DNA of 32,091 nt from Cupriavidus neocaledonicus (GTDB lineage Bacteria; Pseudomonadota; Gammaproteobacteria; Burkholderiales; Burkholderiaceae). The translations under genes were made by a program, and so were the position numbers. Numbering within the stretch: position 1 is the stretch's first letter; each line of letters begins with the position of its first letter. The stretch lies in assembly GCF_000372525.1 (NCBI RefSeq), contig NZ_AQUR01000061.1, forward strand, positions 1-32,091, given 5' to 3'. Shown piece after piece: positions 640 through 29,667 of the stretch. The notes under the pieces were generated by a model. It saw only the letters and a list, made by a program, of their open reading frames with translations, made no database searches and had not been told where the DNA came from.

Positions 640-690
640 AAAAAAGCGCCACGTCATTGACGGTACGCCGCTCTGGATGCGCCGTGGCTT
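640..690 (-). terminator. Rho-independent terminator of the ligD operon
   Basis: Read on the minus strand, AGCCACG directly after the ligD stop codon pairs with CGTGGC about 30 bases later, and the second arm runs into GCTTTTTT. The stem is short and the loop long, with additional GC-rich pairing possible inside it. The U-tract and the position touching the ligD stop support a terminator. Confidence 0.6.
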
Positions 691-8997: not shown

Positions 8998-9002
8998 GGC
9001 GG

Positions 9003-10469
9003 TTATCCGAAGAGACCATGGAGGTACCACCGCGATTCGTCGCCTTCGCGGCTGCCCATCCGCTCCTGGAAGATCCAGTAGCAGGTGTGGTCCTTACCTT
9101 GCGCCACGAAGTAATCGCGCGTGACCACTTGGCCGCCCCACCAGCCGGCTTCGATGCGCTCGGGTGGCGAAACGATATGCAGGGGCGAACCGTAGAACGG
9201 CCGGTGATCCCGCTCGATGAGCGGGACCGGCTTGCCCAACAGCCAGGTTGGTCGAGGCAGGGCTGCCGGCAGGGACACGCGTGCAGGCTTCTCGGTGGCC
9301 GGTCGCCATGCGTTGGCCACCTCGGGGCGGTAGTCTGCCTGCAAGCAGGGCTGGCGAACCCTGTCGGCGCCGAGGCGCGCGCTGAGCAGCTCGAGTAGCC
9401 GGGCGTGATCGGCATGCGTCCCGCCGGGTTCCGGGAAGAGGGACTCCGTGGGCGGTGCCATGGGCTCCGTGTCGATCGCGGACACGGCCACGGCGATCAT
9501 CGGGGCTTCGACGACAACGAGGGCGAGCCGCTCCTTGAGGATGCGGATCAGATGTTCCTCATGCCAGTTGGGCTCGGCGAGCGCAATCTCGATCGTCGTC
9601 GGCGGGATGGCCGCGCGGCCGCGCTCGTGGCGCAATGCCACATGGAACCGCTTGATGGCCAGGTGCCGGGCGGTCAACCAACCCACCATCTGCACCAACA
9701 GGCCGCGAACATACGCCAGCGTCTGTTCGGCATTCTCGATGCGATCCGGCAGATCCACCGTCGCATCGAATGCTGGGGGAGCTTCGACCCACTCGAAGAT
9801 TTCCGGGGCCTCCCCGTAGGCGCGATCCAGGGCATCCAGGAAGTCAGCGCCGCAGCGGCGCTGCAGACCGGCGCGAGGCAGGCGGCGCAGGTCCTCCAGC
9901 GTCAGGCAGCCCAGGCCTTCGAACCAGTCGGCAAACTTGCGCGCGGCGGGCAAGGCGTGAATCGGCAGGCCGGCCATCCTGCGTTGCAACGACGCCGTAG
10001 TCAAGGCGGTGCCACCGCCGGTGCGCGCCAGCAGCCACGCTCCCTGCGCCGTCGGGGCGCTGCCGACCATCGTGCTGAAGCCCATCGTCTGGACGGTCCC
10101 CATGATCCGTCGGCGGAGTTTGCGCGGGCCACCGAAGAGTCGTAGCGTGGTGCTGACGTCGATCAGGACCGCAGCTTCATCTGCAGCGGCGACATTCGGC
10201 GAAAACTGCAGCGTCGCCATGGTGACTCTCGCCAGTGCGTCCTCTTCCTTGCCGGCATCGCGATCAAACAGGATGGCGGCTGGCGCGATGGTTTGCACGC
10301 CGCCGCGGCGCATGCCCGGCTTGACGCCCGCAGCCAGGGCCAGGGGCGTAGCGAGATGGACCCGTTCCTTGTCGAGGACGGCAACGGCCAGTTCAGTGGT
10401 GGACCAGGTCGGCCGGAAGACTTCGAGAGGGAGCGACGGCAGGCGTAGGCAGATCCACAGGCGCAGCAT
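9003..10469 (-). CDS. imuB: ImuB, Y-family polymerase-like mutasome protein
   Basis: The 488-residue protein starts MLRLWICLRLPSLPLEVF at ATG 10469 and overlaps the end of imuA by 77 bp. The open frame extends further upstream, but that part is only the imuA sequence in another frame. It keeps the Y-family fold markers LIDVSTTLRLFGG and ADWFEGLGCLTLEDLRRLPR (helix-hairpin-helix thumb). The N-terminal metal-binding Asp position is replaced (WICLRL), as known for ImuB, which is held to be polymerase-dead and to act as the hub linking ImuA, DnaE2 and the beta clamp. The C-terminus ends YYWIFQ-like CYWIFQERMG and WYLHGLFG, the usual ImuB tail. The gene is intact. Confidence 0.95.
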   Translation of the reverse strand: MLRLWICLRLPSLPLEVFRPTWSTTELAVAVLDKERVHLATPLALAAGVKPGMRRGGVQTIAPAAILFDRDAGKEEDALARVTMATLQFSPNVAAADEAAVLIDVSTTLRLFGGPRKLRRRIMGTVQTMGFSTMVGSAPTAQGAWLLARTGGGTALTTASLQRRMAGLPIHALPAARKFADWFEGLGCLTLEDLRRLPRAGLQRRCGADFLDALDRAYGEAPEIFEWVEAPPAFDATVDLPDRIENAEQTLAYVRGLLVQMVGWLTARHLAIKRFHVALRHERGRAAIPPTTIEIALAEPNWHEEHLIRILKERLALVVVEAPMIAVAVSAIDTEPMAPPTESLFPEPGGTHADHARLLELLSARLGADRVRQPCLQADYRPEVANAWRPATEKPARVSLPAALPRPTWLLGKPVPLIERDHRPFYGSPLHIVSPPERIEAGWWGGQVVTRDYFVAQGKDHTCYWIFQERMGSREGDESRWYLHGLFG

Positions 10470-11100
10470 GGCGATACAACAAAATGGGGGACGGTTCCAG
10501 CGCGACGAGCAGAGGGGTCTCTTGCTGCGGCCCGCGGCGCTTGACGAAGTTGACGGTGACGCCGCCGACGGCAGGCTCGAGGGCCAGGCGCAACGGTGAC
10601 GGCGAGGCATCCCGCGCGCACGCAGCGGGGCGCACCACGAAGAAGAGCGTGTCCGAGGTTTGTGCGGCCAGGTGCAGGCGCCGTAGCGCGTCGTTGCGAA
10701 GGTGGGACTGCCAGAGAATCAAGGCGCCACAAGTCCCGGCCCGCAAGGTCTGCTCGGCCGCCCAAAGGACATCGGCAGTCCGTTGCGCATCAATCCACAG
10801 CAGCCGCTCCGGCGATATTCCCCAGCTCACCAATGAAAGGGCTTGTGGGGCGTGCGGCGGCGCCAGGAGCACGATCGGACGTCCAGATCGGGCCACGAGC
10901 GTGGGGCGCAGCAGCCGGAGTTCGCCGATGCCAGGTTGCTGCAGTAAGAGTTCCACCTGGCTGCCGATGGGCCATCCTCCGCCCGGCAACTCCTTGTCCA
11001 GCGCGGTATAGCCCGTCGAGGCGGTGCGCGCGTTGTCCCGGGCCAGTTGTGAGGCGACCCAAAGTGACGGATGGATGGTTTCAGGGGCGACGGTGAGCAT
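10393..11100 (-). CDS. imuA: ImuA, RecA-like mutasome protein
   Basis: The 235-residue protein (MLTVAPETIHPSLW...) has the ImuA layout: TGYTALDKELPGGGWPIG, then QVELLLQQPGIGELRLL in place of a full Walker A, RPIVLLAPPHAPQ and ALILWQSHLRNDALRRLHLA. It belongs to the SulA/RecA-like ImuA group that starts LexA-controlled imuA-imuB-dnaE2 operons. An in-frame TTG at 11106 is less likely than ATG 11100, since AGGA is spaced about eight bases from the ATG. Its end overlaps imuB by 77 bp, which implies translational coupling. The LexA-controlled promoter lies directly upstream. Confidence 0.93.
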   Translation of the reverse strand: MLTVAPETIHPSLWVASQLARDNARTASTGYTALDKELPGGGWPIGSQVELLLQQPGIGELRLLRPTLVARSGRPIVLLAPPHAPQALSLVSWGISPERLLWIDAQRTADVLWAAEQTLRAGTCGALILWQSHLRNDALRRLHLAAQTSDTLFFVVRPAACARDASPSPLRLALEPAVGGVTVNFVKRRGPQQETPLLVALEPSPILLYRHAAPVDLPTPAVAPSRSLPADLVHH

Positions 11101-11117
11101 TGGCAAGTCCTGTCACC

Positions 11118-13879: not shown

Positions 13880-13972
13880 ATGGGGGTCATTCGGGAGAGG
13901 ATCGACTGGCGCGTCACCTTGGCGGACGCGGCATCGACGCAATCGGCTGGGATGCGACGGGAGATTAGATGA
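13880..13972 (+). CDS. Possible 30-residue leader ORF coupled to the PIN-like gene
   Basis: ATG 13880 is preceded at eight bases by GGGAGG, one of the better ribosome binding sites in the area. The frame encodes MGVIRERIDWRVTLADAAST and ends REIR with a TGA that overlaps the ATG of the next gene (ATGA). The downstream gene has no ribosome binding site of its own as good as this, so the short frame may serve translational coupling. Sequence conservation is unknown. Confidence 0.35.
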   Translation: MGVIRERIDWRVTLADAASTQSAGMRREIR

Positions 13973-14778
13973 TGAGCGCCGACGCCGTCGTGCTGGTCGA
14001 CTTCGAGAGCGTCCAGGACATCGACTTCTCCCAGTTGTGTGGCTCGCGTCTGGTGGTGTTCGCTGGCGAGATCCAGAAGAAGGTCCCCATCGAAGTGGCG
14101 ATGGGGCTGCAGGCGCTAGGCGAGCGCGCCCGGTGGGTTCGCTCAAGCGGAATCGGGCCCAACGCGCTCGACTTCCACATTGCCTTCGAGATCGGCCGCA
14201 TGGTGGAGAAGGGCGAGAAAGGGCCCGTGTTCGTGCTTTCCCACGACCGGGGTTTCGATTCTCTGCTCACCTGGCTCGGCACGAAGCTTGGGATTCCTGC
14301 GCGGCGCGTGACCGCGCTCGCCGAGGCGTTTCGGGCCAGCCCGGCGGACACGGGGGCCGCCGAGGGTCAAGCCTCTGGTCCGGCTCAGCCGAGCCCCACG
14401 CCCGCACAGCCCGCGCGCGCGACGCCGGCTCCGGCGGCTTTCCCAAAGCCGAGCGCGAACGCCAAGCCTGCGGCCCACACGCCTCCGAAGGCGGCCAAGG
14501 CGGCCTCCGTGAAAACGCCCGCCAAAAAGGCCGCGCAGCCCCAGTCAGGCAACGACAAGAAGGGCAGTGCCAAGCCGAACGCCGAGCTCACGCGCCAGAT
14601 CCTGGCCCGCTCGCAGAAGGTTGCCCGGCCGCGCCGACGAGTGACCTTGGCGAAGCACATCCACGCCATGTTTAAGGTGCACGCCATCGCCGAGCGCGAG
14701 GTTGAGTCCATCATCGCCAAGCTCATCGCCAACCGCTCCATCAGCGACGTCGAAGGGGCGATCACCTACCATTTCTGA
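13969..14778 (+). CDS. PIN-like/NYN-type nuclease domain protein with basic C-terminal winged helix
   Basis: The 269-residue protein starts MMSADAVVLVDFESVQDIDF. Acidic residues typical of PIN-like nucleases are visible: D11 and E13, D68 in ALDFHIAFEIGR, and D93/D97 in SHDRGFDSLL. Residues about 120-200 form a low-complexity Ala/Pro/Lys-rich linker (KAAKAASVKTPAKKAAQ), like histone H1 tails. Residues about 205-269 form a helical DNA/RNA-binding-type domain ending VESIIAKLIANRSISDVEGA ITYHF. By family it should be a metal-dependent RNase or regulatory RNA-binding protein. A possible leader ORF overlaps its start. The linker makes it probably able to bind nucleic acids non-specifically (inference). 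Confidence 0.8.
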   Translation: MMSADAVVLVDFESVQDIDFSQLCGSRLVVFAGEIQKKVPIEVAMGLQALGERARWVRSSGIGPNALDFHIAFEIGRMVEKGEKGPVFVLSHDRGFDSLLTWLGTKLGIPARRVTALAEAFRASPADTGAAEGQASGPAQPSPTPAQPARATPAPAAFPKPSANAKPAAHTPPKAAKAASVKTPAKKAAQPQSGNDKKGSAKPNAELTRQILARSQKVARPRRRVTLAKHIHAMFKVHAIAEREVESIIAKLIANRSISDVEGAITYHF

Positions 14779-15198: not shown

Positions 15199-16665
15199 AT
15201 GAACCTACCATCCGCACAAGAGAGGCCTGCGAGCCTCGTTCGCGAACTCTGTAAGCTGCCAACGGAGACCGAGTGGCTTGAGTTCAAGCGCAATCGAGTG
15301 GACCACGAGCAAATCGGTGAGTACATCTCGGCATTGTCGAATTCTGCGGCTCTGGCCAACCGTGCCCACGGGTATTTGATATGGGGAGTCGACGATGCCA
15401 GTCATGAACTCGTCGGCACGATGTTCGACCCCAAGGCCGCGAAGGTGGGCAACGAAGAGCTGGAGAACTGGCTATTGCGCCTGCTCAGCCCGAAAATTCT
15501 ATTCTCTTTCGAGTCCGTGGAAGTTGATGGTCAACGCGTTGTCGTACTCGAAGTTGGTCGCGCTTACCGGCATCCGGTTCAGTTCATGCACAATGAATTT
15601 GTCAGGATCGGGTCGCTGAAGAAGAAGCTGAAGGAATTTCCGGAAAAAGAGCGCGAGCTCTGGCGCATCTTTGACGAGACACCATTCGAGGCAATGGTCG
15701 CTCGCCGCGACGCTTCGGACGAGGAGGTTGTGTCTCTCCTCGACTATCCGGCGTACTTCGATCTGGCAGGAATTCCATTGCCGGAAAACCGCTCCCAGGT
15801 CTTGGAGCGCTTGGCCGCGGAAAGCCTGATCCGGCGCAACGATAGCGGATCTTGGGACATCACCAACCTTGGCGCTATTTTGTTCGCCAAGCGCCTGGAA
15901 GACTTCAGTGGACTGCGGCGCAAAGCAGTGCGGGTAATCGCCTACGAAGGCAGAGATCGCGTCAGCACCCTTCGCGAGCAGGTTGGTGCGAAGGGGTACG
16001 CGGCTGGCTTTGAGGGATTGATCGGTTACATCAATGCTTTGCTGCCGTCCAACGAGATCATCGGCAAGGCTATCCGAAAGGATGTTCCCATGTATCCGGA
16101 ATTGGCAGTGCGGGAGCTTGCGGCCAACGCGCTCATCCATCAGGATTTTGGCTTGGGAGGAGCAGGGCCGATGATAGAGATCTTTAAGGACCGGATGGAG
16201 GTGACAAATCCTGGTAGTCCACTCATCAATGTCGAGAGATTCCTGGATACGCCCCCGCGTTCGCGGAACGAAGGGCTTGCTTCCCTCATGCGGCGCTTCG
16301 GCATCTGCGAGGAACGGGGAAGCGGCGTGGATAAGGTAGTGTCGGTCACGGAGGCTTACCAGCTGCCCGCTCCGGAGTTCTCGACAGTTTCCGACCATAC
16401 GCGGGCAACCTTATTCGCGCACAAAGAACTTACGAAAATGGACAAATCCGACCGAGTGCGTGCTTGCTACCTGCATGCATGCCTTCGGTACGTCCAGCGC
16501 GACTATATGACCAATGCGAGTTTGCGAGATCGGTTCGGCATTCCGGTCCAGAACAGTGCGACGGCGTCGCGACTGATCAAGGAGGCCGTGGAGGGTGGCA
16601 TGCTTCGGCCGTACGATGAGACTGCAGGCCGCAAGTTCATGAAGTATGTGCCGTACTGGGCATAG
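15199..16665 (+). CDS. AlbA_2 (Schlafen-like) and HATPase_c_4 domain protein
   Basis: The 488-residue protein has an N-terminal AlbA_2/Schlafen domain (TETEWLEFKRNRVDHEQIGE at about 22-41, then AHGYLIWGVDD at 56-66, VVVLEVGRAYRHPVQ and VRIGSLKKKL). The central region (about 165-290) contains winged-helix segments, and a HATPase_c_4 domain follows with its N-box in ELAVRELAANALIHQDF (301-317), NPG (337-339) and EERGSGVDKV (371-380). The C-terminal about 70 residues form another helix-turn-helix. These proteins are often misannotated as RecG-like helicases. Roles proposed for the family range from transcription control to phage defence; none can be assigned here. The frame is intact and typical in length. 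Confidence 0.85.
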   Translation: MNLPSAQERPASLVRELCKLPTETEWLEFKRNRVDHEQIGEYISALSNSAALANRAHGYLIWGVDDASHELVGTMFDPKAAKVGNEELENWLLRLLSPKILFSFESVEVDGQRVVVLEVGRAYRHPVQFMHNEFVRIGSLKKKLKEFPEKERELWRIFDETPFEAMVARRDASDEEVVSLLDYPAYFDLAGIPLPENRSQVLERLAAESLIRRNDSGSWDITNLGAILFAKRLEDFSGLRRKAVRVIAYEGRDRVSTLREQVGAKGYAAGFEGLIGYINALLPSNEIIGKAIRKDVPMYPELAVRELAANALIHQDFGLGGAGPMIEIFKDRMEVTNPGSPLINVERFLDTPPRSRNEGLASLMRRFGICEERGSGVDKVVSVTEAYQLPAPEFSTVSDHTRATLFAHKELTKMDKSDRVRACYLHACLRYVQRDYMTNASLRDRFGIPVQNSATASRLIKEAVEGGMLRPYDETAGRKFMKYVPYWA

Positions 16666-19122: not shown

Positions 19123-21483
19123 ATGTCTGTCTCCTACGACCCCAGGCAAATCGCAGCATGGCTGGACTCCTTCACGGTGTCCAAGGCCCGCTCCTATGCG
19201 AGCGCAGTCTCGGAACTCCGCTGGATCGACGGGGATACTTTAGCGGGTCTGGTGCAAGGCACACGTTCGCGTCCGTACGACGTGCGTGCGTATTTCCACG
19301 ACATCGACGAAGACATGTGGGTGGAAGGGGAATGCACGTGTCCGGTCGGCGTTGACTGCAAGCACGTTGCCGCGCTGCTGATCGCCGGGCTTGCGCTTCA
19401 GCCCAAGCCATCGGCCACTGGCGTGCGCGCCGAACTGGTGACCTGGCTCGAAGGTTTTCGCGCCCGACGCACGGCGGCCACTCCCGCTGCCAAGAAAAAG
19501 TCTGCCAAAGCCACGCATGCACTGGCTTACGTGATTGAACAATCCTATCGCGGCGCCGAGATCTTTCTGTACAAGGCCCGCGTGGGCGCTGACGGGACGA
19601 TTCGCTCGCTGGACGATCCGTGGCAGAACGTGGAGAAAGCGCTGATCCAGCCGCCGAAATTTGTCACCGAGGAAGATCTGCCGATCCTGCGCGGGCTGTG
19701 GCTGGGCCGCTCTGGCGCCTATTCCGGAGGTTTCAGTTTAGAGGGCACAACCGGTGCCGCTACCCTGGAGAAGCTGATCGCTACCGGCCGCCTGTTTGCC
19801 TCTTCCGCTGTGGGTACGATGCACCCCGGAACGCCCTGTCTCGTGCACAGCGGGCCCGCACGCAGCGCACAGATTACGTGGCAAGCGCAGGCCGACTCAC
19901 GCGTGCGGCCAGTCTTGCAGGCCGAGCCACCCGCCACCCTGTTGCTGACGACCACCCAGCCATGCTGGTATGTGGATGCGCATTCGGGCGAATCCGGACT
20001 CCTCGCCTTACCGTGGCCCGCGGAGCAGGTCGCGGATTTCCTGTCGATGCCGGCCATCACGCTCGACGAAGCGGCACTCGTTGGCAGTGTGCTACGTGAA
20101 ATTGCCCCGGACCTCCCTGCGCCACCAGCGGCCGACGCGTCGTCCATTCAGATGATCGACTCCGTACCGGTCCCAGTCCTGGCTCTGGATACCCTGCCGG
20201 TCTGGGGCGCGGGCTGGTCGCCGTCTGCTTCCCAGGGCGGATTGGATTTTGCGACGGTCAGCTTTGATTACGCGAGTCACAGCCTTCCCGCAAACAGCAA
20301 CACGACCCTGGTTCGAACCGCTGGCGGTGAAGTCATACAGATCCGAAGGTCAACTGAGCTCGAGCGCAAACGTCTGACAGAGCTACAGAAGGCCGGTTTC
20401 CGAAAGATTCCGGCCCATCGCGCTCAGGGCCCGAAAGCGTTTCCGCCTGGCTTGCTGGGCCCCGAGGATGACGGCGGCTGGCCAGACCTCATGACGCTGG
20501 TATTGCCCGCGCTCCGGGCAAGCGGCTGGCGCGTCGTCATGACCGACGCGTTTCGACACAACGTGATCGAGATCGAGGCCATTGACGGCAACTTGCGTCC
20601 GACCGGCGATGGCTGGTTTGACGTCGAGATGGGCATCACCGTCAATGGTCGCACGGTGCGCCTGGAACTACTGCTGGCAGACCTCTTTCGTCGGGACTCG
20701 CGCTGGCTGTCAGGCCAGCTCGAGACCATCGCTGACGACGAAGCGATCGACCTGAAAACCGATCGCAACGAACGGCTGCGCCTACGGGCGGACCGGCTCA
20801 AGCCGGTCGTGCGCGTGCTGATCGACCTGTTCGACTCGCTGGGCACCGGCATGCGCATTTCCAAGTGGGATGCGGCGCGACTCCATGCCCTGGATCAGAC
20901 CGGGCGCTGGCAGTTTCATGGCGACGCATCGATCCGATTGCTCGCGCAGCGTCTGATGGCGGGTCGTGGCGTGACGGACGTGCCAGTGCCGCGTGGGCTG
21001 AAGGCCGACCTGCGTGCTTACCAGCGCCAGGGACTTGCCTGGATGCAGTTCCTGCGCGAGCACGGGCTATCCGGCGTGCTTGCCGACGATATGGGCCTCG
21101 GCAAGACCATCCAGGCACTTGCACACATCCTCACCGAAAAGGAACGTGGCAGGCTGGACCGGCCAGCACTGATCGTCGTGCCGACCACGCTCATGCACAA
21201 CTGGTGCGAGGAAGCGCAGCGCTTCACTCCGAGGCTACGCGTGCTGGCTCTGCACGGATCCCAGCGTCACGAGCGCTTTGACCAGATCGGCGAGCATGAT
21301 CTCATCCTGACCACCTACGCTTTGCTTCGATTCGACCCAGTAGCCATTCGTAGACGGTTGGTCCAGTGTGCTCCTTTGCCGCCCAGTGGGCGATGTCGTG
21401 CAACTGCTCGTCAATCCGACGAAACTTCGCATCGTTTACCTGGCGCAGTCGCTCGAGGTTCTGTCGAATGGCTTCCCGGTTGA
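19123..21483 (+). pseudogene. SWIM/SNF2-family helicase, truncated after the Walker B region approach
   Basis: The frame begins MSVSYDPRQIAAWLDSF. A SWIM zinc finger is at residues 71-81 (CTCPVGVDCKH). The SNF2 helicase domain starts near residue 620: LKADLRAYQRQGLAWMQFL, the Walker A-type DDMGLGKTIQAL at about 652-663, ALIVVPTTLMHNWCEEAQRF, and HDLILTTYALL at about 724-734. The family should continue with the DEAQ box and the C-terminal helicase lobe, several hundred residues. Instead, from about 21330 the frame reads through reverse-strand jetA sequence to a chance stop at 21483. The helicase is therefore inactive in its ATPase part. Proteins of this kind are found as stand-alone or defence-associated ATPases. 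Confidence 0.88.
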
Positions 21484-22153
21484 GCATCGCATTGTCCGCG
21501 GTCAACTGCTTGGAGTACTCGCGCTGGAAACGGTCAAGAAATTCGACGAATTCGCTCCATTGCCGTTGGACCGAGGCTGTCTGCATTAGGTGGCGCACGA
21601 GTTCCTGGAAGTAATCGATGCCTTCGGTTAGGTCCTCGATAACCTTCTCGGCGTACTCGTAGGCGTCGACCAGGTCGTGAGCATCGCCGCGGGCTTGAAG
21701 CGCTGCTTCGAGCGCATTGCGGCAGCCGCGCATGTTTCGCTGGCGACTTCGACCCGGCCGGTCAAGCATCCAGAGCGCCTCGGCAAGGAGTTTGCCCGGG
21801 CGCGAGAATCGAAATGCCGTGACCAGGCCATGCCGGTCTGCGAACTGTTCAAGCCAGCCGTCGGTCAGAAGGGCCCGCATCAGCAGGTTCGTCAGTTGCA
21901 CTGGCTCACCGTCTGCGCTGCTGAATTCGTCGGGCTCAGCTTCCGTGGTCAGCCGGTCGGGGTTGTCACGCACGACCGCCATGAGCAGTTCGCGTAGCAA
22001 GTCACGCGTCATTGTGTGCGCATAGTCGGCTGCTGGCCCGTGCAGGCGCTCGTACAAAGCGCGCAAGCAAGCGACAACGAGCTCCCGACGTGAGCTGTTC
22101 AGGGGCCTGAAGAAACGTTTGCGCTCGGCCTCGAAGAACACGGGTTGACTCAT
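21302..22153 (-). pseudogene. jetA: Wadjet system protein JetA, 3' truncated
   Basis: The 283-residue frame starts MSQPVFFEAERKRFFRPLNS then RRELVVACLRALYERL and continues with GWLEQFADRHGLVTAFRFSR, the arginine-rich RQRNMRGCRNALEAAL and DLVDAYEYAEKVIEDLTEGI. This is JetA (DUF5716), the kleisin-like subunit of the Wadjet SMC complex that cleaves circular plasmids. JetA is usually about 450-500 residues. Here the match ends near YEWLLGRIEAKR, and the last residues come from the opposite strand of the SNF2 gene. jetB, jetC and jetD, expected next on the minus strand, are absent. Its ATG overlaps the stop of a 20-codon frame (MRDLVPQVVSLPPLHGGNIP). Confidence 0.85.
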
Positions 22154-22542: not shown

Positions 22543-22995
22543 CTAAGTGTTCCACCACTTGCGCAGCAAATCTATCAGCTGACGAATAAGTCCCGGCGCT
22601 GTTCCCGAGGTTGGAGGGTTGTTCCCAGTCTGCCTTTCCGACGCGGCATTGGTTCGACTGACATAGCGCTCCATGTCGCGCCGATCACGCTGCCGTACCG
22701 ATTCAATGGCTTTGGCATCGAATGCTCCGGCCTTGATTACCTGGTTCCGGATTATGTTGTAGTGTGACTTACAGGCGTATTTCCAGTTTCCAACAGATGG
22801 CAAAAGGGTCACCGCCTCTCCCTCTTTCCGGATTCGCCATTTCGCTGGGTTTAGCGGTGTGATAACCTTTTCACCGCAACCACAGCAGCAAAGATGGGCA
22901 GCAGTCTCGAACTCCTCACTAATATAAAGGACGCCCTCTTCTAAATTGGCTGGAAAATGTTCCACATATTCCGGGCGGATCGTGCGTATCTTCAT
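22543..22995 (-). CDS. DUF6527 protein of the ubiquitin-like operon
   Basis: The 150-residue protein begins MKIRTIRPEYVEHFPANLEE then GVLYISEEFETAAHLCCCGC. The cysteine cluster HLCCCGCGEKV (34-44) and the later CKSHY (75-79) form a probable zinc site. PSVGNWKYACKSHY and the C-terminal LIRQLIDLLRKWW complete the family pattern. DUF6527 proteins typically lie beside ThiF/E1-like and multiubiquitin genes. I recall that in bacterial ubiquitination-like (Bub) operons a member was given a peptidase/deconjugase role, but I cannot verify that here. The ATG overlaps the E1 stop codon by four bases (ATGA), so the two genes are translationally coupled. An in-frame start at 23022 is disfavoured for that reason. 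Confidence 0.88.
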   Translation of the reverse strand: MKIRTIRPEYVEHFPANLEEGVLYISEEFETAAHLCCCGCGEKVITPLNPAKWRIRKEGEAVTLLPSVGNWKYACKSHYNIIRNQVIKAGAFDAKAIESVRQRDRRDMERYVSRTNAASERQTGNNPPTSGTAPGLIRQLIDLLRKWWNT

Positions 22996-24164
22996 TGATG
23001 GGTGCACTGGTTCCAGGAGCACTTATAATTGATCACGTTTGGCGAGATTTCATCCGTAAAGAACTGCAGATGCTGCTTGTATCGGATTAAGGCTAAATTT
23101 GCGTTGATCGAATTGAGCTCAGCCAATTGAATGTTGCCATAGACTGCCTCATCGGAATCATCGGCAGTCGGAAGGGAGTCAACCAGATACGCGGTGTCTG
23201 GTGTGACCAATGTTACCCGCGCCCGGCCGTGTAGCTTGAGAAGATCCGGCTTCTTGTCCACACCAATGCCTACATCAATGAACGGGATACGGGCGTTCGC
23301 CAAGTACCGTGCGATGAGACCGCGCGACGGGCCATGGTCGACCGCAATAAATACAAACTGACAATCGTGCAATTGCCCGAGGTTGGCTTCGGCCACCATC
23401 TCCGGATGACTAACAATGCCGGTTCTGAACTGGCTGAAGGTTTGCTGCAGAAGGTCCGTCTTCTTGTGCTTACCGTACACAGTTTCTATTGGCAGTGCGC
23501 CCGGCACCCGGAACGCATTATGTGGCTCGATGATATCACCATCAAACAGGTGAATCTCTGCCACCGGCGTCTTCGCCAGACCGTCGAGAATATAAGCCCC
23601 GGTTCCACCTAGCCCGACGATCGCCACCTTTTTAAGCTCAAGTTTGGCCTCGTATGCTTCGAGCCCGGCCCTCGCAGTGGCCCAGTTCGGATAGTGAAAA
23701 ACCGACGCCGTGTCCCGGCGTGTAAAGCTACCCCTCCCGCGCGCACTAGCCGTGGAATCAATGGCCGAAGCGTAGCTGCCTAGTTTGCGAATGTAGTGGG
23801 TCAGCTTGTTGTAATAGCAACTGAGCATATCGCCGATTGGTTCCGGCTTATATGAAAGTTGGCAAAGTGCAGTTCGCCCCGCCACAGTCTGGGGAGTGGA
23901 ATTAGCCACCATCGCACTTTCCAGCGAAACACCGTCATCCCTGTATGGAATCGACCCAGTAAAAAACACCCAGTGGTCGAGGATCGCGGGTACGCCGGCA
24001 TGCTCGGCGTACGTCGAAATCATAGTCCCATAGCCAAGCGTACGGGACTGCTTGACATAAGGCACCCTGTGGACGATCAGGTGGCTGCCTTCAAGGCTGA
24101 TCTCGTAACCCTCGTCAACGAGACGCTGCAAGTCGGCATTAGGAGCGGTTCGATTTGCCAGCAT
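22992..24164 (-). CDS. E1-like activating enzyme (DUF6791-ThiF)
   Basis: The 390-residue protein has an N-terminal DUF6791-type domain (about 1-165: LQRLVDEGYEISLEGSHLIV, VHRVPYVK, LDHWVFFTGSIPYRDDG) and a ThiF/E1 Rossmann domain (about 175-350). The adenylation residues are visible: VAIVGLGGTGAYILD (180-194), the acidic FDGD (207-210) followed by EPHNAFR, and the lysine-containing GKHKKTD. Cysteines at 101, 116, 268, 382 and 387 are candidates for a thioester site. By family the enzyme adenylates the C-terminus of a ubiquitin-like protein. Start ATG 24164 lies inside the end of the beta-grasp gene (26-bp overlap), its presumed substrate. Confidence 0.9.
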   Translation of the reverse strand: MLANRTAPNADLQRLVDEGYEISLEGSHLIVHRVPYVKQSRTLGYGTMISTYAEHAGVPAILDHWVFFTGSIPYRDDGVSLESAMVANSTPQTVAGRTALCQLSYKPEPIGDMLSCYYNKLTHYIRKLGSYASAIDSTASARGRGSFTRRDTASVFHYPNWATARAGLEAYEAKLELKKVAIVGLGGTGAYILDGLAKTPVAEIHLFDGDIIEPHNAFRVPGALPIETVYGKHKKTDLLQQTFSQFRTGIVSHPEMVAEANLGQLHDCQFVFIAVDHGPSRGLIARYLANARIPFIDVGIGVDKKPDLLKLHGRARVTLVTPDTAYLVDSLPTADDSDEAVYGNIQLAELNSINANLALIRYKQHLQFFTDEISPNVINYKCSWNQCTHQ

Positions 24165-24375
24165 CAAATTTCATCCCATTCTCGAGATCCACCGATTGAC
24201 CGGGCGTCAAGCTTCCCACCTTATGACCGTGCTTCCAATCCACGTCATACAAGCCAAGGTCAACGCCCGACACGTTAATGTTGGCCAACTCCAAAACTTT
24301 CTCGAAAGTGATTTGTGGGCCCGTCACCTTCTTGGGGTCCGTGTTGATGAAAATCTGAAACTCATGGGGATTCAT
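24139..24375 (-). CDS. Multiubiquitin-type beta-grasp (ubiquitin-like) protein
   Basis: The 78-residue protein reads MNPHEFQIFINTDPKKVTGP then QITFEKVLELANI and ends LENGMKFDAGKSNRS. The pattern FxIFINtdpKkVtGpqITFEkVLeLA, followed by YDVDWKHGH and a final GM.F strand, is that of the multiubiquitin domain, a single copy here. The last glycine is G73, with five residues (KSNRS) after it, so the C-terminus is not a bare Gly. It would need trimming to be conjugated through G73, or may act differently. GAGG lies six bases before ATG 24375; the longer TTG start at 24402 is unlikely. The E1 gene overlaps its end by 26 bp. Confidence 0.85.
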   Translation of the reverse strand: MNPHEFQIFINTDPKKVTGPQITFEKVLELANINVSGVDLGLYDVDWKHGHKVGSLTPGQSVDLENGMKFDAGKSNRS

Positions 24376-24545
24376 AGTGGTCCTCGTTAGGCAGTAATTC
24401 AAAGGTCTAAACGTGCGTCATTGCACGCACAACAATGCATACAACACATCACTTCAATGCAAGTTAACTCGGCCCCCATTGCACTGGTGAACGGTGTCGG
24501 CCTCAAACCGGGCATTCCAGCTGCCCGTAGAAAGTGACGCGATGA
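24376..24545. other. Gap inside the ubiquitin-like operon
   Basis: This 170-bp gap is the only large spacing in the minus-strand gene group. It contains the inverted repeat GTGCGT-CATTGC-ACGCAC at 24413-24430. Weak promoter-like hexamers (CTTGCA, then TATGCA after 16 bases) face the multiubiquitin gene. The E1/ubiquitin module may therefore have its own promoter, or the hairpin may tune read-through. Confidence 0.4.
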
Positions 24546-24731
24546 TTAGCGACTGCTGTTCGGCGTGATCTTTACTGGAGTCCAGGTACGCCCAGGCTTA
24601 GTCGTCGTGGGCAGTGACCTGTTGTCTGGCACTGTGGCGTAGTTCCGCTGCTTGCCACCGCGCGGACCAATCTCCTGGTAGATCCCGCCCTTGTTTCCGG
24701 TGCTTTCACCCGGCTTCTTCGTGGTCACCAT
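24546..24731 (-). CDS. YjzC-like small protein
   Basis: The 61-residue product MVTTKKPGESTGNKGGIYQE continues IGPRGGKQRNYATVPDN and ends with RTWTPVKITPNSSR. The KPGE..GNKGGIYQEIGPRGG core and the closing RTWTPV resemble the YjzC-like family. Function is unknown. It has the best ribosome binding site in the window, AAGGAGGT, four bases before the ATG, so high expression is likely. It lies 28 bp behind the DUF3892 gene on the same strand. Confidence 0.7.
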   Translation of the reverse strand: MVTTKKPGESTGNKGGIYQEIGPRGGKQRNYATVPDNRSLPTTTKPGRTWTPVKITPNSSR

Positions 24732-24759
24732 AGGGACCTCCTTAGGTAGATTGGCGTTA

Positions 24760-25044
24760 CTACAACGGACACTGGTTCAGCGCCAGCAGGTTGTTGTTCC
24801 AGCGGCCGTCCGCATGTGTGCGCAGATACGGTGCCTTCCCAGCGTCCCGGACCACGCCAATGTCGGCGCGCTTGCCTGTAGACGGGTCCAACACATAGAA
24901 CGTGTTGGTCTTGGCATCGATGCTTTGGATTACCTGTTCGCGTGTCCACATCCAATCCGCGGCTGGATTACCCAGATGTGTGATGTGTTCGTGCGGGCTC
25001 TGTGGGTTGGGCTTACTGATACAAGTTACACGTGCGTCAGCCAT
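24760..25044 (-). CDS. DUF3892 family protein
   Basis: The 94-residue protein starts MADARVTCISKPNPQSPHEH and shows the DUF3892 signatures: a first VTCI strand, HEHITHLG, WTREQVIQSIDAKTNTFYV, and the closing YLRTHADGRWNNNLLALNQC P. Function is unknown. It is the first gene of the minus-strand operon, facing the XRE repressor gene across the operator region. AGGAAG is spaced about seven bases before ATG 25044. Confidence 0.82.
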   Translation of the reverse strand: MADARVTCISKPNPQSPHEHITHLGNPAADWMWTREQVIQSIDAKTNTFYVLDPSTGKRADIGVVRDAGKAPYLRTHADGRWNNNLLALNQCPL

Positions 25045-25092
25045 AACAATCTTCCTTTCTTTCTTGCTGCTGCCAGAAGCGTCATCTACAAT

Positions 25093-25108
25093 ATGACGAA
25101 TTCGTCAT
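25093..25108. promoter_or_regulatory. Palindromic operator O1 of the XRE repressor
   Basis: ATGACGAATTCGTCAT is a perfect 16-bp palindrome, 49 bases upstream of the DUF3892 start codon. Its size and symmetry fit a dimeric XRE-type repressor, and the motif recurs in front of the XRE gene. Read towards DUF3892, it would sit in the spacer of a weak promoter with TATTGT as -10. Confidence 0.7.
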
Positions 25109-25126
25109 GCTCCTGACCGAAAGAGA

Positions 25127-25140
25127 GGCCCCGCGGGGCC
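25127..25140. repeat. GC-rich palindrome between the two operators
   Basis: GGCCCCGCGGGGCC is a perfect 14-bp palindrome lying between operators O1 and O2. Its role could be structural or a hairpin separating the two divergent promoters. Confidence 0.5.
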
Positions 25141-25156
25141 ATGACGAATCAGTCAA
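25141..25156. promoter_or_regulatory. Operator O2 of the XRE repressor (imperfect)
   Basis: ATGACGAATCAGTCAA repeats the O1 half-site ATGACGAA exactly and keeps GTCA in the other half. Its centre lies 48 bp from that of O1. A third half-site, TTCGTCAT, at 25172-25179 overlaps the XRE start codon. Confidence 0.6.
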
Positions 25157-25169
25157 TTTTTACTATACG
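25141..25169 (+). promoter_or_regulatory. Putative promoter of the XRE-ImmA pair, possibly leaderless
   Basis: ATGACG (25141-25146, inside O2) and TATACG (25164-25169) are 17 bases apart. Transcription would begin about 25175-25178, at or next to the XRE ATG at 25178. No ribosome binding site precedes that ATG, so the transcript may be leaderless. O2 overlaps the -35, which fits autorepression. Confidence 0.5.
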
Positions 25170-25177
25170 CTTTCGTC

Positions 25178-25540
25178 ATGTCGCAGTCAACACCCCCGCC
25201 CACCTCACCGTCCGCCGTCTTTCCAAGTCGATTGCGAACGGCGCGTGAGTATCGCGGCCTGAACCAGGGCGAACTAGCCCAAAAGGCCGGGATGCAGCCG
25301 TCCGCGATTTCTCACTTCGAAACTGGCACCCGAAAACCATCCTTTGATAACTTGCGCATCTTGGCTGACAGCCTTGATGTCACTACTGATTACCTTCTAG
25401 GCCGTGTTGAGGACTTCAAGGCTCTGGCTGGAGCGGATCGCCTTCATAGGCATTATGGGTCACTTCAACCATCGGACCGAAAGATGGCCGACGATCTGAT
25501 AACCATGCTTGCCAAGCGCGCGCAGGAAAAAGGCAAATAA
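25178..25540 (+). CDS. XRE-family repressor (CapH-like)
   Basis: The 120-residue protein has an N-terminal XRE helix-turn-helix at about residues 17-75 (RLRTAREYRGLNQGELAQKA, then GMQPSAISHFETGTRKPSFD, NLRILADSLDVTTDYLLGR) and a helical tail. It should bind the ATGACGAA operators as a dimer. The ImmA-type peptidase gene follows with a TAATG overlap. XRE plus ImmA/IrrE pairs (CapH-CapP, DdrO-IrrE, ImmR-ImmA) act as repressor plus anti-repressor protease; the repressor is cut upon DNA damage or phage infection. By position it controls the divergent ubiquitin-like operon. Confidence 0.9.
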   Translation: MSQSTPPPTSPSAVFPSRLRTAREYRGLNQGELAQKAGMQPSAISHFETGTRKPSFDNLRILADSLDVTTDYLLGRVEDFKALAGADRLHRHYGSLQPSDRKMADDLITMLAKRAQEKGK

Positions 25541-26418
25541 TGATAAAAGCCGATCCCTATGCCTTTGCCTCTCTCGCCGCGGAACAGATCATCAAGGGCC
25601 TTGGGATCGCTGCACTTCCGGTCGACCCTAAAGCAATCGCTCGCGACTGCGGCATCGAGGTGGTCGCGAAGCCCATGGAAAATGAAGGTGTCTCAGGAAT
25701 GCTTGTCCGGTATGGCAATGACTTCGCCATTGCCTATGCCACGCACCATGAGAATGAAGGCTTTGAGAACTTCAGCGTCGGTCACGAGCTAGGCCACTAC
25801 TACCTGCCCGGCCACGTAGATGCCGTCATCGTTGGCGACGCCGGCTCGCATGTGTCACGCGCAGGATATTTGTCTGGAGACAAGTATGAAGCGGAGGCCG
25901 ATCGCTTTGCCGCAAGCTTCCTGATGCCTCGCCATCTGTTCTTTCCGGCACTTGAGCGTGCCGGTGTCGGTCTTGCGGCTATCGAAAGACTTGCGGTGCT
26001 GTGCAAGACGTCCATCCATGCCACGGCAATTCGATATGCGCAATGCACTCGCGAGGCTGTGGCGATCATCGTTAGCCGCAGCGGCATCATTGACCACTGT
26101 TTTATGTCTGAGGCGCTAAGGAATCTTGATGGGATTGATTGGCTTAGGAAGCGGAAAGCGGTACCGCAAAATACAGCCACCTACGCGTTCAACCAGGACC
26201 CGGTCAATGTGCGACACGGGAACCGCGTCGAAGAAGGTTCAAATCTCCAACACTGGTTCGGCGGCCGACGCAGCATCGAGATCTGCGAAGACGTTGTTGG
26301 TCTTGGCCGCTATGGCAAAACACTGACAGTGCTTTACGACATCGACCTACCCTCCCCAGAAGACGAGGAGGAAGAGCGATCTCTTATCGAGTCTTGGACC
26401 CCGCGATTCAAGCGATAG
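25540..26418 (+). CDS. ImmA/IrrE-family zinc metallopeptidase (CapP-like)
   Basis: The 292-residue protein carries the gluzincin motif HELGH at 82-86 in SVGHELGHYYLPGH and the third ligand region YEAEADRFAASFLMP at 116-130, as in ImmA/IrrE peptidases. The N-terminus (LAAEQIIKGLGIAALPVDPK, ARDCGIEVV) is also typical. A C-terminal domain of about 140 residues follows, ending in an acidic EDEEEERSL tail; in CapP/IrrE this position holds a sensor domain. The ATG overlaps the XRE stop codon (TAATG), giving coupled translation. It most likely cleaves the XRE repressor when triggered. Confidence 0.92.
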   Translation: MIKADPYAFASLAAEQIIKGLGIAALPVDPKAIARDCGIEVVAKPMENEGVSGMLVRYGNDFAIAYATHHENEGFENFSVGHELGHYYLPGHVDAVIVGDAGSHVSRAGYLSGDKYEAEADRFAASFLMPRHLFFPALERAGVGLAAIERLAVLCKTSIHATAIRYAQCTREAVAIIVSRSGIIDHCFMSEALRNLDGIDWLRKRKAVPQNTATYAFNQDPVNVRHGNRVEEGSNLQHWFGGRRSIEICEDVVGLGRYGKTLTVLYDIDLPSPEDEEEERSLIESWTPRFKR

Positions 26419-26445: not shown

Positions 26446-26492
26446 TTTATCGATATAGTGGGCGGCGTTTAGCCGCCCACTATATCGATAAA
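26446..26492. repeat. Perfect 21-bp inverted repeat with 5-base loop
   Basis: The arms 26446-26466 and 26472-26492 are exact reverse complements around GTTTA. The stem combines an AT-rich outer part (TTTATCGATATAG) with a GC-rich inner part (TGGGCGGC). It begins 28 bases after the ImmA stop. No T-run follows on either strand, so it is either an unusual terminator or a protein/recombination site. Confidence 0.85.
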
Positions 26493-27991: not shown

Positions 27992-28840
27992 TTAGCGATT
28001 TGTTATGAGCCAGCCTTCGAGTTGCCCAGCCAGAGCATCGGGCCGCGTATCGGAATACGAAACGACGCCCATATCCTGCACTTCCTCAAGCAACTGGCCG
28101 GTCTTTTTCGCTATTGCCATTTCGACCGGCGTCTCCGGATCAGGCAAGACAACGAACAGCGCGGGTGGCGCCGCGTGTCGATGTGTAAGATTGTGCGCAA
28201 CAAGAACGTCTTTTAGCGACTTATAGACGTGACGCTCGACAGTTTGCATACTGGAATATCGGGCTGAGAGAATATTCCCAAAACTCTTCCCATTGTCTAG
28301 TCCCACATGCAGTTTCCTTGCGCCGATGGTCAATTCACGATTTGGCACAAAGATCTTTCTCGATAACGAAGCCAGGGCTTTGCGCATCTCCATGTATGCC
28401 CAATCATCATCCATCGGCGATTCGCGTGGCGCAACATCGACCCAAAGAGCGCCAGCTTGGCGTTTGAGCAAGCTTGTGAGTTCCTTCTCGACATGATCCG
28501 TGGCAAGGTAACCGCAACTCACCATCCGCACGTGTGGCGTCCCAGTCGCTGCTTTGGAGAGACCCTCTCGGAAGCTGGCGCCAATAGCGTTTTCGATGCC
28601 TTTCACCAAATCACGAAGGTCAGTTCCGCTCAGCGCATCTCCATAAAGACTTGAAAGCTTGTTAAACGCCGGAAGCCATCGAAGGAGCGGACGCTCGTCC
28701 CCCTTGATCACCGCCGCGACGCCTATGACAAAGTCCTGCTGACTGGCCAGGTCCGGACGGAAGAAAACGGTCGCCCACTCTCCAGTAAAGACTGGCTCGC
28801 GTACGGCCGCTGTTCGCGAAAGAAGAAGTGAGAGGTCCAT
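27992..28840 (-). CDS. Partner protein of the HipA-like kinase, 282 aa
   Basis: The protein starts MDLSLLLSRTAAVREPVFTG and contains WATVFFRPDLASQQDFVIGV and YLATDHVEKELTSLLKRQAG. No domain is recognised with confidence. Its FVIGVAAVI segment and place directly behind a HipA-like kinase recall the DUF3037 partners of such kinases, but it is longer and the match is weak. ATG 28840 shares one base with the kinase stop codon (TAATG), so translation is coupled and the two proteins are probably made in fixed ratio. The pair may be a toxin-antitoxin-like or defence module. An in-frame TTG at 28858 is disfavoured. Confidence 0.75.
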   Translation of the reverse strand: MDLSLLLSRTAAVREPVFTGEWATVFFRPDLASQQDFVIGVAAVIKGDERPLLRWLPAFNKLSSLYGDALSGTDLRDLVKGIENAIGASFREGLSKAATGTPHVRMVSCGYLATDHVEKELTSLLKRQAGALWVDVAPRESPMDDDWAYMEMRKALASLSRKIFVPNRELTIGARKLHVGLDNGKSFGNILSARYSSMQTVERHVYKSLKDVLVAHNLTHRHAAPPALFVVLPDPETPVEMAIAKKTGQLLEEVQDMGVVSYSDTRPDALAGQLEGWLITNR

Positions 28841-29667
28841 TAGATTAAGCGCCCGCAAGCTTGCGCAAGCGTACCATTGCTGGCGCGCGTGCTCATGTAT
28901 TCAACGATCGTGTCGATCTGCTCCGAGTCCAGGAGGCCGATTAAGTCCCTACGCAGTTGGTTTGACACTTCCGGCCAGATGTCTTGCGTCTTAAGACCCT
29001 CCTGTAGCACTGATGCATACCACGACGAAAGTTGGGATGCCGTCATCTCCCTCTGTGCCGCGAGGTTGAGTTGATTTCCGGCCGTCTCGTCTGGCCAGGA
29101 GGAATGCCAATAAGGGCCTCCACCTACCGCGCCTTGGTCGATGGCAACGTACTTCATATCGTCCAAGTATAAGAAGTTGGCATCACTTCGATCGCTGTTA
29201 CCTGTGGCATGGTCAACACCAGTGAGGATGTGAGCAAACTTGCTTCTAAAGAAAGCGGCAAGCTGATCCTGGTCGAAAGTGGACAGACGGCGCAAGAACC
29301 GGAACGGTTTGGCATTCTGCACCAACGTGGCAGCCCAGCACACGGCCAGACCTGTACTCCGATCTACGTAGGCTGTGACATCGGCATCGAAGACTGGCAA
29401 CATCTCCCGGTTCAGCAGAATGACTCCTCCCCTCGCTGGCTGGTCGACTCCCCTTACGGCATTCGCCGTAAAGCCGATGACCTCGTTTGCCACGCCGCAC
29501 GAATCGGTTGGGTAAAGCTTGATCACCGTATCTTCCGGCTCACTTGCCCCTGGCCACAGAACGCGCCCCACAAAAACAGGTTGAGCGCCTGTCGCGTGGA
29601 CAGCATCGTGGTCACTGACCCAGCCCGAAAATCCACAATACGCATCTGCGTGCAAGACGCTAATCAA
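28840..29667 (-). CDS. HipA-like serine/threonine kinase
   Basis: The 275-residue protein shows a HipA/PI-kinase-like active site: Lys50 in DTVIKLYP, Glu62 in NEVIGFTANAV, the catalytic loop DHATGNSDRSDANFLY with D159 and N164, and the metal-binding D177 in VAIDQGA. This is the HipA-like kinase domain group, smaller than HipA itself and lacking its N-subdomain 1. A kinase of this kind could phosphorylate a translation factor or an incoming phage protein; the target is unknown. The start is TTG 29667, with GGGAGCGG five bases upstream and no ATG before residue 89. It is the first gene of a two-gene operon. Confidence 0.78.
   Translation of the reverse strand: MISVLHADAYCGFSGWVSDHDAVHATGAQPVFVGRVLWPGASEPEDTVIKLYPTDSCGVANEVIGFTANAVRGVDQPARGGVILLNREMLPVFDADVTAYVDRSTGLAVCWAATLVQNAKPFRFLRRLSTFDQDQLAAFFRSKFAHILTGVDHATGNSDRSDANFLYLDDMKYVAIDQGAVGGGPYWHSSWPDETAGNQLNLAAQREMTASQLSSWYASVLQEGLKTQDIWPEVSNQLRRDLIGLLDSEQIDTIVEYMSTRASNGTLAQACGRLI

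What the first reader, a model, noticed from the sequence alone, without database searches (positions are those of the whole stretch)
22543..26418. Ubiquitin-like conjugation operon under an XRE/ImmA protease switch
Seen: DUF3892, YjzC-like, multiubiquitin-type beta-grasp, DUF6791-ThiF E1 and DUF6527 genes lie in one direction, with ATGA and 26-bp overlaps in the core. An XRE-ImmA/IrrE pair diverges across a shared operator region. Established: ThiF/E1 plus ubiquitin-like genes form Bil and Bub-type bacterial conjugation systems, and CapH-CapP (XRE plus IrrE-type peptidase) switches on CBASS and other defence operons on DNA damage. Inference: this is a damage- or phage-triggered ubiquitin-like tagging system with two added small genes. 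The five-gene composition with this regulator is not one I can match to a named system.
Basis: partly seen in the sequence, partly recalled or inferred. Interest (0 to 1): 0.9.

Follow-up and report, generated by a model that had tools for sequence, protein, structure and literature searches.

The report
Ubiquitin-like cassette behind a damage switch
In Cupriavidus bacteria, a three-gene ubiquitin-like cassette of a family found across many bacterial phyla lies directly behind a control module that also occurs without it, and the pair is predicted to switch on after DNA damage and would then likely attach a small protein tag to other proteins, possibly against phages or other stress.

Summary
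The genes are real, but the locus is a composite of two modules. (1) Window 22543-24375: Ubl, E1 (DUF6791-ThiF) and DUF6527, found together in 77 of 78 other loci read (one is cut off), over at least ten phyla. The class was described in 2006 as operon type 6e with 'domain X' in place of JAB. Its sister is published Bub: the CapS accession that a 2026 paper puts before Bub is followed by Ubl-E2, JAB-E1 and DUF6527. The window branch has no recognisable E2 or JAB. (2) Window 24546-26418: CapP-CapH-operator-DUF3892-small gene, which occurs elsewhere without the cassette (77% DNA identity ending at both gene ends); four of four opened CapP relatives precede CBASS. Not seen in what I could read: E1 starts inside Ubl with a fixed 26-nt overlap in 76 of 78 loci; the Ubl ends in Ser (77 of 78), never GG; no E1 cysteine exceeds 73%, while one DUF6791 Ser is invariant; three unrelated damage switches change places as freely as shuffled labels. 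Conjugation, induction and defence are untested, and the E1 fold could not be predicted.

The parts
22543..22995 (-). DUF6527 protein, 150 aa: zinc-type residues H34, C36, C38, C40, C75, H78 (150-aa numbering) and a basic, aromatic C-terminal helix
   Evidence: Pfam PF20137 75.4 bits; in 77 of the 78 loci, L072 being cut off; residue conservation over 78 rows, C38 at 95%, the other five at 100% (numbers nine higher); AlphaFold2 model pLDDT 91.7, eight strands then two helices
22992..24164 (-). E1: N-terminal DUF6791 ('domain X') plus ThiF adenylation domain, 390 aa; invariant H64 and S104, no well-conserved cysteine
   Evidence: Pfam PF20590, PF00899; 78-row conservation, best cysteine column 73% and not Cys in the window (whose numbers are one higher)
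24139..24375 (-). Ubiquitin-like protein, one beta-grasp (Multi_ubiq) domain, 78 aa, ends ...FDAGKSNRS
   Evidence: Pfam PF14452 37.3 bits; tail statistics over 78 loci
24139..24164 (-). 26-nt overlap of Ubl and E1; E1 ATG lies inside the Ubl tail
   Evidence: same geometry in 76 of 78 loci, 21 of 24 in a second set
24376..24545 (-). 170-bp junction between the two modules; no promoter-like or terminator-like site found in it
   Evidence: blastn match to L098 ends at the small-gene stop, match to the second cassette begins 1 nt before the Ubl ATG; scan
   Evidence: L098, L086, L161 carry it beside HTH-ImmA without Ubl
24760..25044 (-). DUF3892 gene, 94 aa, part of the switch module
   Evidence: Pfam 54.9 bits; L098 and L086 with HTH-ImmA, L087 with an ImmA gene
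25045..25177 (.). shared promoter/operator with TGACGAA/TTCGTCA half-sites (25093-25108, 25141-25155, 25167-25180); consensus-scan -10 TATAGT of the minus-strand operon at 25167-25162
   Evidence: kept in L098; the palindrome is unique in the genome
25178..25540 (+). CapH-type XRE repressor, 120 aa
   Evidence: PADLOC capH E 1.5e-23
25540..26418 (+). CapP-type ImmA/IrrE metallopeptidase, 292 aa, HELGH motif
   Evidence: PADLOC capP E 8.9e-60, Pfam PF06114; four of four opened plasmid relatives of its L098 homologue precede CBASS

Best explanation
This is a three-gene Bub-like cassette (Ubl, DUF6791-E1, DUF6527) lying directly behind a separately occurring CapH-CapP-DUF3892-small-gene module; it is predicted to be derepressed by DNA damage and then likely to conjugate its Ubl to proteins through an E1 that would carry its own substitute for an E2. 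Shown here: the two modules, their separate occurrence, the fixed Ubl/E1 overlap, the Ser-ended Ubl tail, and the lack of an E2 or JAB that the profiles used can recognise and of any E1 cysteine above 73%. Established for relatives, not tested here: CapP is activated by single-stranded DNA and cleaves CapH (PMC13373217, passages). Inferred: cleavage of CapH opens the promoter at 25045-25177; transcription runs through DUF3892 and the small gene into Ubl-E1-DUF6527; the ThiF domain adenylates the C-terminal Ser of the Ubl, which needs no trimming; the acyl group passes to the invariant Ser104 of DUF6791 as an oxyester, in the place where Bub has a cysteine-less E2 fused to its Ubl; DUF6527, with its zinc-type site and basic tail, chooses targets, perhaps at the membrane.
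For: Core: Ubl in 84 of 84 and DUF6527 in 83 of 84 loci, four own-genome loci and the window's own allele L003 included. Switch: CapP-type genes 46 times in 247 kb just upstream against 7 in 725 kb elsewhere in the same loci; CapK/CapS or CapW in its place elsewhere; labels HTH-ImmA 47, CapK/S 10, CapW 4, other 13, cut 4 of 78 rows; 13 changes on the E1 tree against a shuffled mean of 13.3. Modules: 77.3% DNA identity over 1873 bp to L098, from the capP stop to the small-gene stop; 70.4% over 1634 bp to the genome's own second cassette, from the Ubl ATG on. Regulator swapped in: CapP 80% identical to L098's but 27% (over 197 aa) to that of L004, whose E1 is 68% identical. Bub link: CapS WP_001567865.1 is followed, on a plasmid of another E. 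roggenkampii strain, by Multi_ubiq+Prok-E2_E, Prok-JAB+ThiF and DUF6527; that ThiF protein matches PDB 'Citrobacter BubCD' at 1.2e-253. No Bub E2_E or JAB in the ORFs of 127 loci at E 0.01, of which 104 hold the cassette, with positive controls. Tail Ser 77 of 78, GG 0 of 78. One invariant Ser in DUF6791 and one in Bub E2_E, no well-conserved Cys in either.
Against: DUF6791 is not shown to be E2-like: HHalign gives probability 0.95%, E 0.058, and 8 of 100 column shuffles score as high. DUF6527 keeps cysteines, one at 95%, that could be catalytic rather than zinc ligands. My Ubl profile does not find the Bub Ubl at E 0.01 and BLASTP sees nothing; only Pfam's Multi_ubiq unites them. The second cassette in the same genome has no Cap-type gene in the 18 kb fetched, and 13 of 74 rows have none of the three switches, so damage control is not universal. 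The CapP profile also takes fused HTH-ImmA proteins, so not all 47 need be CapH-CapP proper, and L038 (weak) and L017 (CapS near a contig end) were counted as CapK/S. Cotranscription over the 170-bp junction is untested. No substrate or phenotype is known; the 2026 paper says Bub has not been shown to protect against phage.
Confidence: 0.6

Rival explanations
1. DUF6791 is a stand-in for JAB, i.e. a peptidase or regulator that trims or removes the Ubl, as Iyer and colleagues speculated for 'domain X'; transfer is done by a host protein or directly from the adenylate.
For: It sits exactly where JAB sits in BubCD and has conserved polar residues (H64 and S104 invariant, K120 nearly). The 2006 text makes this guess.
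Against: No similarity to JAB (HHalign probability 0.26%, 3 columns). The Ubl already ends at its conserved tail, so no trimming seems needed.
Confidence: 0.2
2. No conjugation: E1 adenylates the Ubl to make a carrier or a peptide-nucleotide product, as ThiF/MoeB or MccB do.
For: MccB is among the nearest solved E1s (E 5e-4); no recognisable E2 and no well-conserved E1 cysteine.
Against: The nearest solved E1 is BubCD (1.5e-11 with the profile), named by its depositors for a ubiquitination-like pathway. A sulfur carrier would be expected to end in GG (recalled); 0 of 78 do.
Confidence: 0.15
3. The five genes form one dedicated system, with DUF3892 and the small gene as working parts of the tagging pathway.
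For: Same strand, one shared operator; DUF3892 also lies behind the DUF6527 of a BubCD-type operon remnant in L097; the order is kept in three further genomes of the same genus, with identical CapP.
Against: 0 of 78 loci have them; one or both occur with ImmA-type genes and no Ubl in L098, L086, L087, L161.
Confidence: 0.12

Closest known systems
Bub (bacterial ubiquitination-like) operons, E. roggenkampii / Citrobacter type
   Same: Multi_ubiq Ubl, ThiF E1, DUF6527, in that order, behind a damage-responsive Cap regulator
   Different: Bub has Prok-E2_E fused to the Ubl and Prok-JAB fused to E1; the window branch has neither. Whether the authors count this branch as Bub could not be checked: their two papers are not held.
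Operon type 6e with 'domain X' (Iyer, Burroughs, Aravind 2006, PMC1779556; section 14 read whole, Table 1 and other parts as passages)
   Same: E1 with a non-JAB N-terminal domain, one to three Ubl repeats, a metal-binding partner; Ralstonia (now Cupriavidus) metallidurans is listed under the footnote for it
   Different: What I read of it does not mention a regulator at the promoter, the 26-nt overlap or the Ser tail
9cd2, 'ZDHYS365 multi-ubiquitin domain protein' (PDB)
   Same: A solved Ubl of this very branch: it matches nearly letter for letter (E 1.3e-145) the Ubl of the Buttiauxella DUF6791 locus L030
   Different: Three beta-grasp domains there (recalled), one here; the window Ubl matches it at E 0.15 only
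CapH-CapP of CBASS
   Same: Divergent HTH-ImmA pair; four of four opened plasmid relatives (46-48% identical to L098's CapP) precede CBASS operons
   Different: No CBASS cyclase family among the ten window ORFs scanned; it faces DUF3892 and a Ubl cassette
Bil (BilABCD)
   Same: Ubl and E1
   Different: Bil has separate E2 (CEHH cysteine) and JAB enzymes (PMC11354881, passages); none recognised here

Membership tests
Bub as characterised (E. roggenkampii / Citrobacter) | Multi_ubiq ubiquitin-like protein | tested here: met
   PF14452 above cut-off in both; but no direct profile or BLAST match between the two Ubls
Bub as characterised (E. roggenkampii / Citrobacter) | ThiF-type E1 | tested here: met
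   HHalign 97.8%, E 1.1e-12 between the two ThiF alignments; PDB BubCD is the nearest solved E1
Bub as characterised (E. roggenkampii / Citrobacter) | DUF6527 partner | tested here: met
   PF20137 in both; 35% over 57 aa
Bub as characterised (E. roggenkampii / Citrobacter) | Prok-E2_E domain (fused to the Ubl) | tested here: not met
   0 hits at E 0.01 in ORFs of 127 loci, 104 with the cassette; control 6.2e-61
Bub as characterised (E. roggenkampii / Citrobacter) | Prok-JAB domain fused to E1 | tested here: not met
   DUF6791 there instead; 0 hits, control 1.1e-85
Bub as characterised (E. roggenkampii / Citrobacter) | CapW, CapH+CapP or CapK+CapS at the promoter (common, not universal) | tested here: met
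   CapH/CapP in the window; 61 of 74 rows have one of the three kinds
Bub as characterised (E. roggenkampii / Citrobacter) | Protein conjugation activity | not testable with these tools
   needs biochemistry
Operon type 6e with domain X (2006) | E1 with an N-terminal domain unrelated to JAB | tested here: met
   DUF6791; HHalign to JAB 0.26%
Operon type 6e with domain X (2006) | One to three Ubl repeats in the neighbouring gene | tested here: met
   one here, three in the Acinetobacter relative L106
Operon type 6e with domain X (2006) | Metal-binding partner with C-x3-C-x(35-38)-H-x2-C | tested here: inconclusive
   DUF6527 has C36-x3-C40-x34-C75-x2-H78: nearly the same spacing, H and C in the other order. 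The model has strands, not a helix, at the second pair.
CapH-CapP | HTH repressor and ImmA/IrrE peptidase pair matching the curated models, divergent from the operon | tested here: met
CapH-CapP | ssDNA-activated cleavage of CapH | not testable with these tools
   established for relatives (PMC13373217 passages)
Bil | E2 with catalytic Cys and JAB peptidase | tested here: not met
   no E2 or JAB family among ten window ORFs scanned with Pfam; no Bub-type E2_E or JAB hit near the cassettes

The most novel reading that the evidence does not exclude
The DUF6791 branch is a minimal, thioester-free ubiquitin-like ligase: one protein is both E1 and E2 substitute, the Ubl ends naturally in Ser and is passed as an oxyester through Ser104, and there is no peptidase of its own to undo it. 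The 26-nt overlap locks the exact C-terminus of the Ubl to the start of its own activating enzyme, and this lock has held from Burkholderiales to Bacteroidota and Chloroflexota while three unrelated DNA-damage switches were swapped in front of it.
Probability: 0.3. Interest if true: 0.8.

Novelty: new variant of a known kind. Interest (0 to 1): 0.55.

Why it matters
The branch without E2 and JAB is widespread (515 related stretches among 84,980 species genomes by two motifs), while the enzymes named Bub that I could identify are of the JAB type. If the branch conjugates without any thioester, it is a very small ubiquitin-like system and a direct test of how little such a system needs. The regulator swapping suggests that DNA damage, not one particular sensor, is what matters for its use, and the composite locus shows how plasmids can assemble such systems from ready parts.

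Tried and rejected

Counting: the 78 loci are L004-L082 without L011 (same genome as L010), the best-scoring 80 of 515 being all that was kept; near copies are included, and 78 tree rows form 69 groups at 90% identity. The tree has L003 and lacks L048 (split E1). The E1 rows are the window and 77 relatives. The iterated CapH profile also takes CapP genes, so only the CapP profile was used for counts.
Full report
What is in the window. On the minus strand, in order of transcription, lie DUF3892 (24760-25044), a 61-aa small gene (24546-24731), Ubl (24139-24375), E1 (22992-24164) and DUF6527 (22543-22995). On the plus strand lie capH (25178-25540) and capP (25540-26418), divergent across 25045-25177. 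The start sites follow the annotation of the near-identical Cupriavidus taiwanensis plasmid NZ_CP016951.1, whose E1 is 99.7% identical. The window is one contig of a 6.77 Mb genome, and Cupriavidus sp. WGlv3 holds the same E1.

The cassette. A scan of 84,980 species genomes found 515 related stretches, of which the best 80 were kept. With iterated profiles I found Ubl in 84 of 84 loci and DUF6527 in 83 of 84, these counts including four own-genome loci and L003, the window's own allele. The set used below is 78 loci of other genomes, near copies included, from Pseudomonadota, Actinomycetota, Bacteroidota, Chloroflexota, Bacillota, Acidobacteriota, Planctomycetota, Verrucomicrobiota, Nitrospirota, Balneolota and one archaeon (L055), going by the record titles. 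The family is patchy: 1 of 274 genomes sampled in the class and 18 of 299 in the family, 108 of 72,556 plasmid records with a match over at least 80% of E1, no phage record.

The frozen overlap and tail. In 76 of the 78 loci an ATG in the E1 frame begins exactly 26 nt before the end of Ubl, stop codon counted; no other in-frame offset within 62 nt exceeds 23. Collapsing E1s at 90% identity leaves 66 of 68 groups. In a second set 27 loci were tried; in 24 both genes were found, five of them the window's own or sister copies, and 21 agree; L145 and L147 are a divergent subgroup and L146 has a split E1. The nine-residue Ubl tail ends in Ser in 77 of 78, with K, R or Q before it in 77, T or S at -4 in 78, and no GG in the last eight in any. 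Over 78 E1 rows no cysteine column exceeds 73%; H64 and S104 (390-aa numbering) are invariant, as are the adenylation residues GGTG, D208, D210, R219 and K235.

What it is related to. A 2026 paper studies an E. roggenkampii CapK-CapS pair that sits in front of a Bub operon and gives its CapS as WP_001567865.1 (passages). On plasmid NZ_CP109730.1, from another E. roggenkampii strain, this exact accession is followed by three genes. Pfam shows Multi_ubiq plus Prok-E2_E, then Prok-JAB plus ThiF, then DUF6527. The middle protein matches the PDB entries named Citrobacter BubCD at 1.2e-253. So published Bub is Ubl-E2, JAB-E1, DUF6527, and the window is Ubl, DUF6791-E1, DUF6527. The 2006 survey had already put both under operon type 6e, with an E1 carrying an unrelated 'domain X' in place of JAB and a metal-binding partner 'Y', and lists Ralstonia metallidurans for the domain X form. 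DUF6791 as domain X, DUF6527 as Y and Prok-E2_E as its inactive E2-like domain are my identifications. The survey calls that E2-like domain cysteine-less; in my 95 rows it has no conserved cysteine and one invariant Ser, in WSRHR. DUF6791 likewise has one invariant Ser, in FSxKP (LSYKP in the window). That parallel, plus the oxyester chemistry that I recall for Bub from an abstract seen in no call here, is the basis of the Ser104 proposal; profile comparison does not prove homology.

Two modules. L098 has CapP, CapH, DUF3892 and the small gene in the same order, with no Ubl, E1 or DUF6527 in the 8.3 kb fetched, and two genes that I read as integrases following. The other half of the window aligns at 70.4% over 1634 bp to the genome's second cassette, starting at the Ubl ATG. 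That second cassette lies behind genes that I read as nrdA and nrdB, with no Cap-type gene in the 18 kb fetched. The nearest relative of the cassette in another genus, with its own CapH-CapP pair (L004), has an E1 68% identical but a CapP only 27% identical. So the switch module appears to have been exchanged as a unit. Nitrosospira (L086), Acinetobacter (L161) and Bradyrhizobium (L087) carry DUF3892 and/or the small gene beside HTH-ImmA or ImmA without Ubl, and Deefgea has an ImmA gene upstream of the small gene. Of 35 plasmid records with a relative of the L098 CapP I opened four, and all four precede CBASS operons.

Switch swapping. Of 78 E1 rows, 47 have an HTH-ImmA/CapP-type gene upstream, 10 CapK/CapS, 4 CapW, 13 none of these and 4 are cut off. 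The CapS label rests on one member, L031, that matches the solved structures 9z71 and 9z72 at 1.8e-48 and 1.5e-50, and on profiles built from it and four others; CapW rests on the WYL domain. On the E1 tree the labels need 13 changes where 2 would do, and shuffled labels average 13.3, as low in 98 of 200. The paper's own counts for Bub are 219 of 544 with CapW or CapH+CapP and 59 with CapK+CapS.

What remains open. The step from adenylated Ubl to target, the role of DUF6527, cotranscription across the 170-bp junction, induction and any phage effect are inferred. The two Bub papers could not be read here, so I cannot say whether this branch was counted in them. 'Not seen in print' is claimed only for what my seven paper searches and the three papers read in part (PMC13373217 and PMC11354881 as passages, PMC1779556 section 14 and passages) would have shown.

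Noticed in passing
window 19123-22153: Two broken genes abut: a SWIM/SNF2 helicase that stops early in its SNF2 domain (profile 1-114 of 290) and, on the other strand, the N-terminal half of a Wadjet JetA (PADLOC 2-273 of 475, E 4e-130).
   Followed up: partly
G000:C96, about 71840-73660 (L102 11840-13660): A second Ubl-E1-DUF6527 cassette lies on the same strand directly behind genes that I read as nrdA and nrdB, without a Cap-type gene in 18 kb.
   Followed up: partly
window 26446-26492: A perfect 21-bp inverted repeat with a 5-bp loop just after capP, found once in the genome and, among the loci held then, only in copies of this same allele.
   Followed up: partly
L097 2-1303: A DUF3892 gene directly behind the DUF6527 of an operon whose E1 remnant, cut by the contig start, is 59% identical to the Bub JAB-E1 P0217.
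   Followed up: partly
L055 (Candidatus Nitrosotalea devanaterra): An archaeal member of the cassette, with ACG instead of ATG at the 26-nt position and a divergent 430-aa neighbour without a Pfam family.
   Followed up: no
L040, L046, L023, L028, L029: Actinobacterial loci with no Cap regulator carry long genes just upstream; the one scanned (L040) matches RecF/RecN/SMC-type ATPases.
   Followed up: no
L145, L147: A divergent DUF6791 subgroup whose Ubl ends ...GTGES and lacks the 26-nt overlap.
   Followed up: no
window 5845-11106 and 689-3226: ORFs that I read as DnaE2, ImuB, ImuA and a LigD-type ligase (no family search made); the sister plasmid annotates imuA at the matching distance.
   Followed up: no
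window 13969-14778 and 15199-16665: A PIN7 protein and a Schlafen AlbA_2 protein.
   Followed up: no
window 27992-29667: Two overlapping minus-strand ORFs (288 and 275 aa) with no significant Pfam, NCBIfam or PADLOC family.
   Followed up: no
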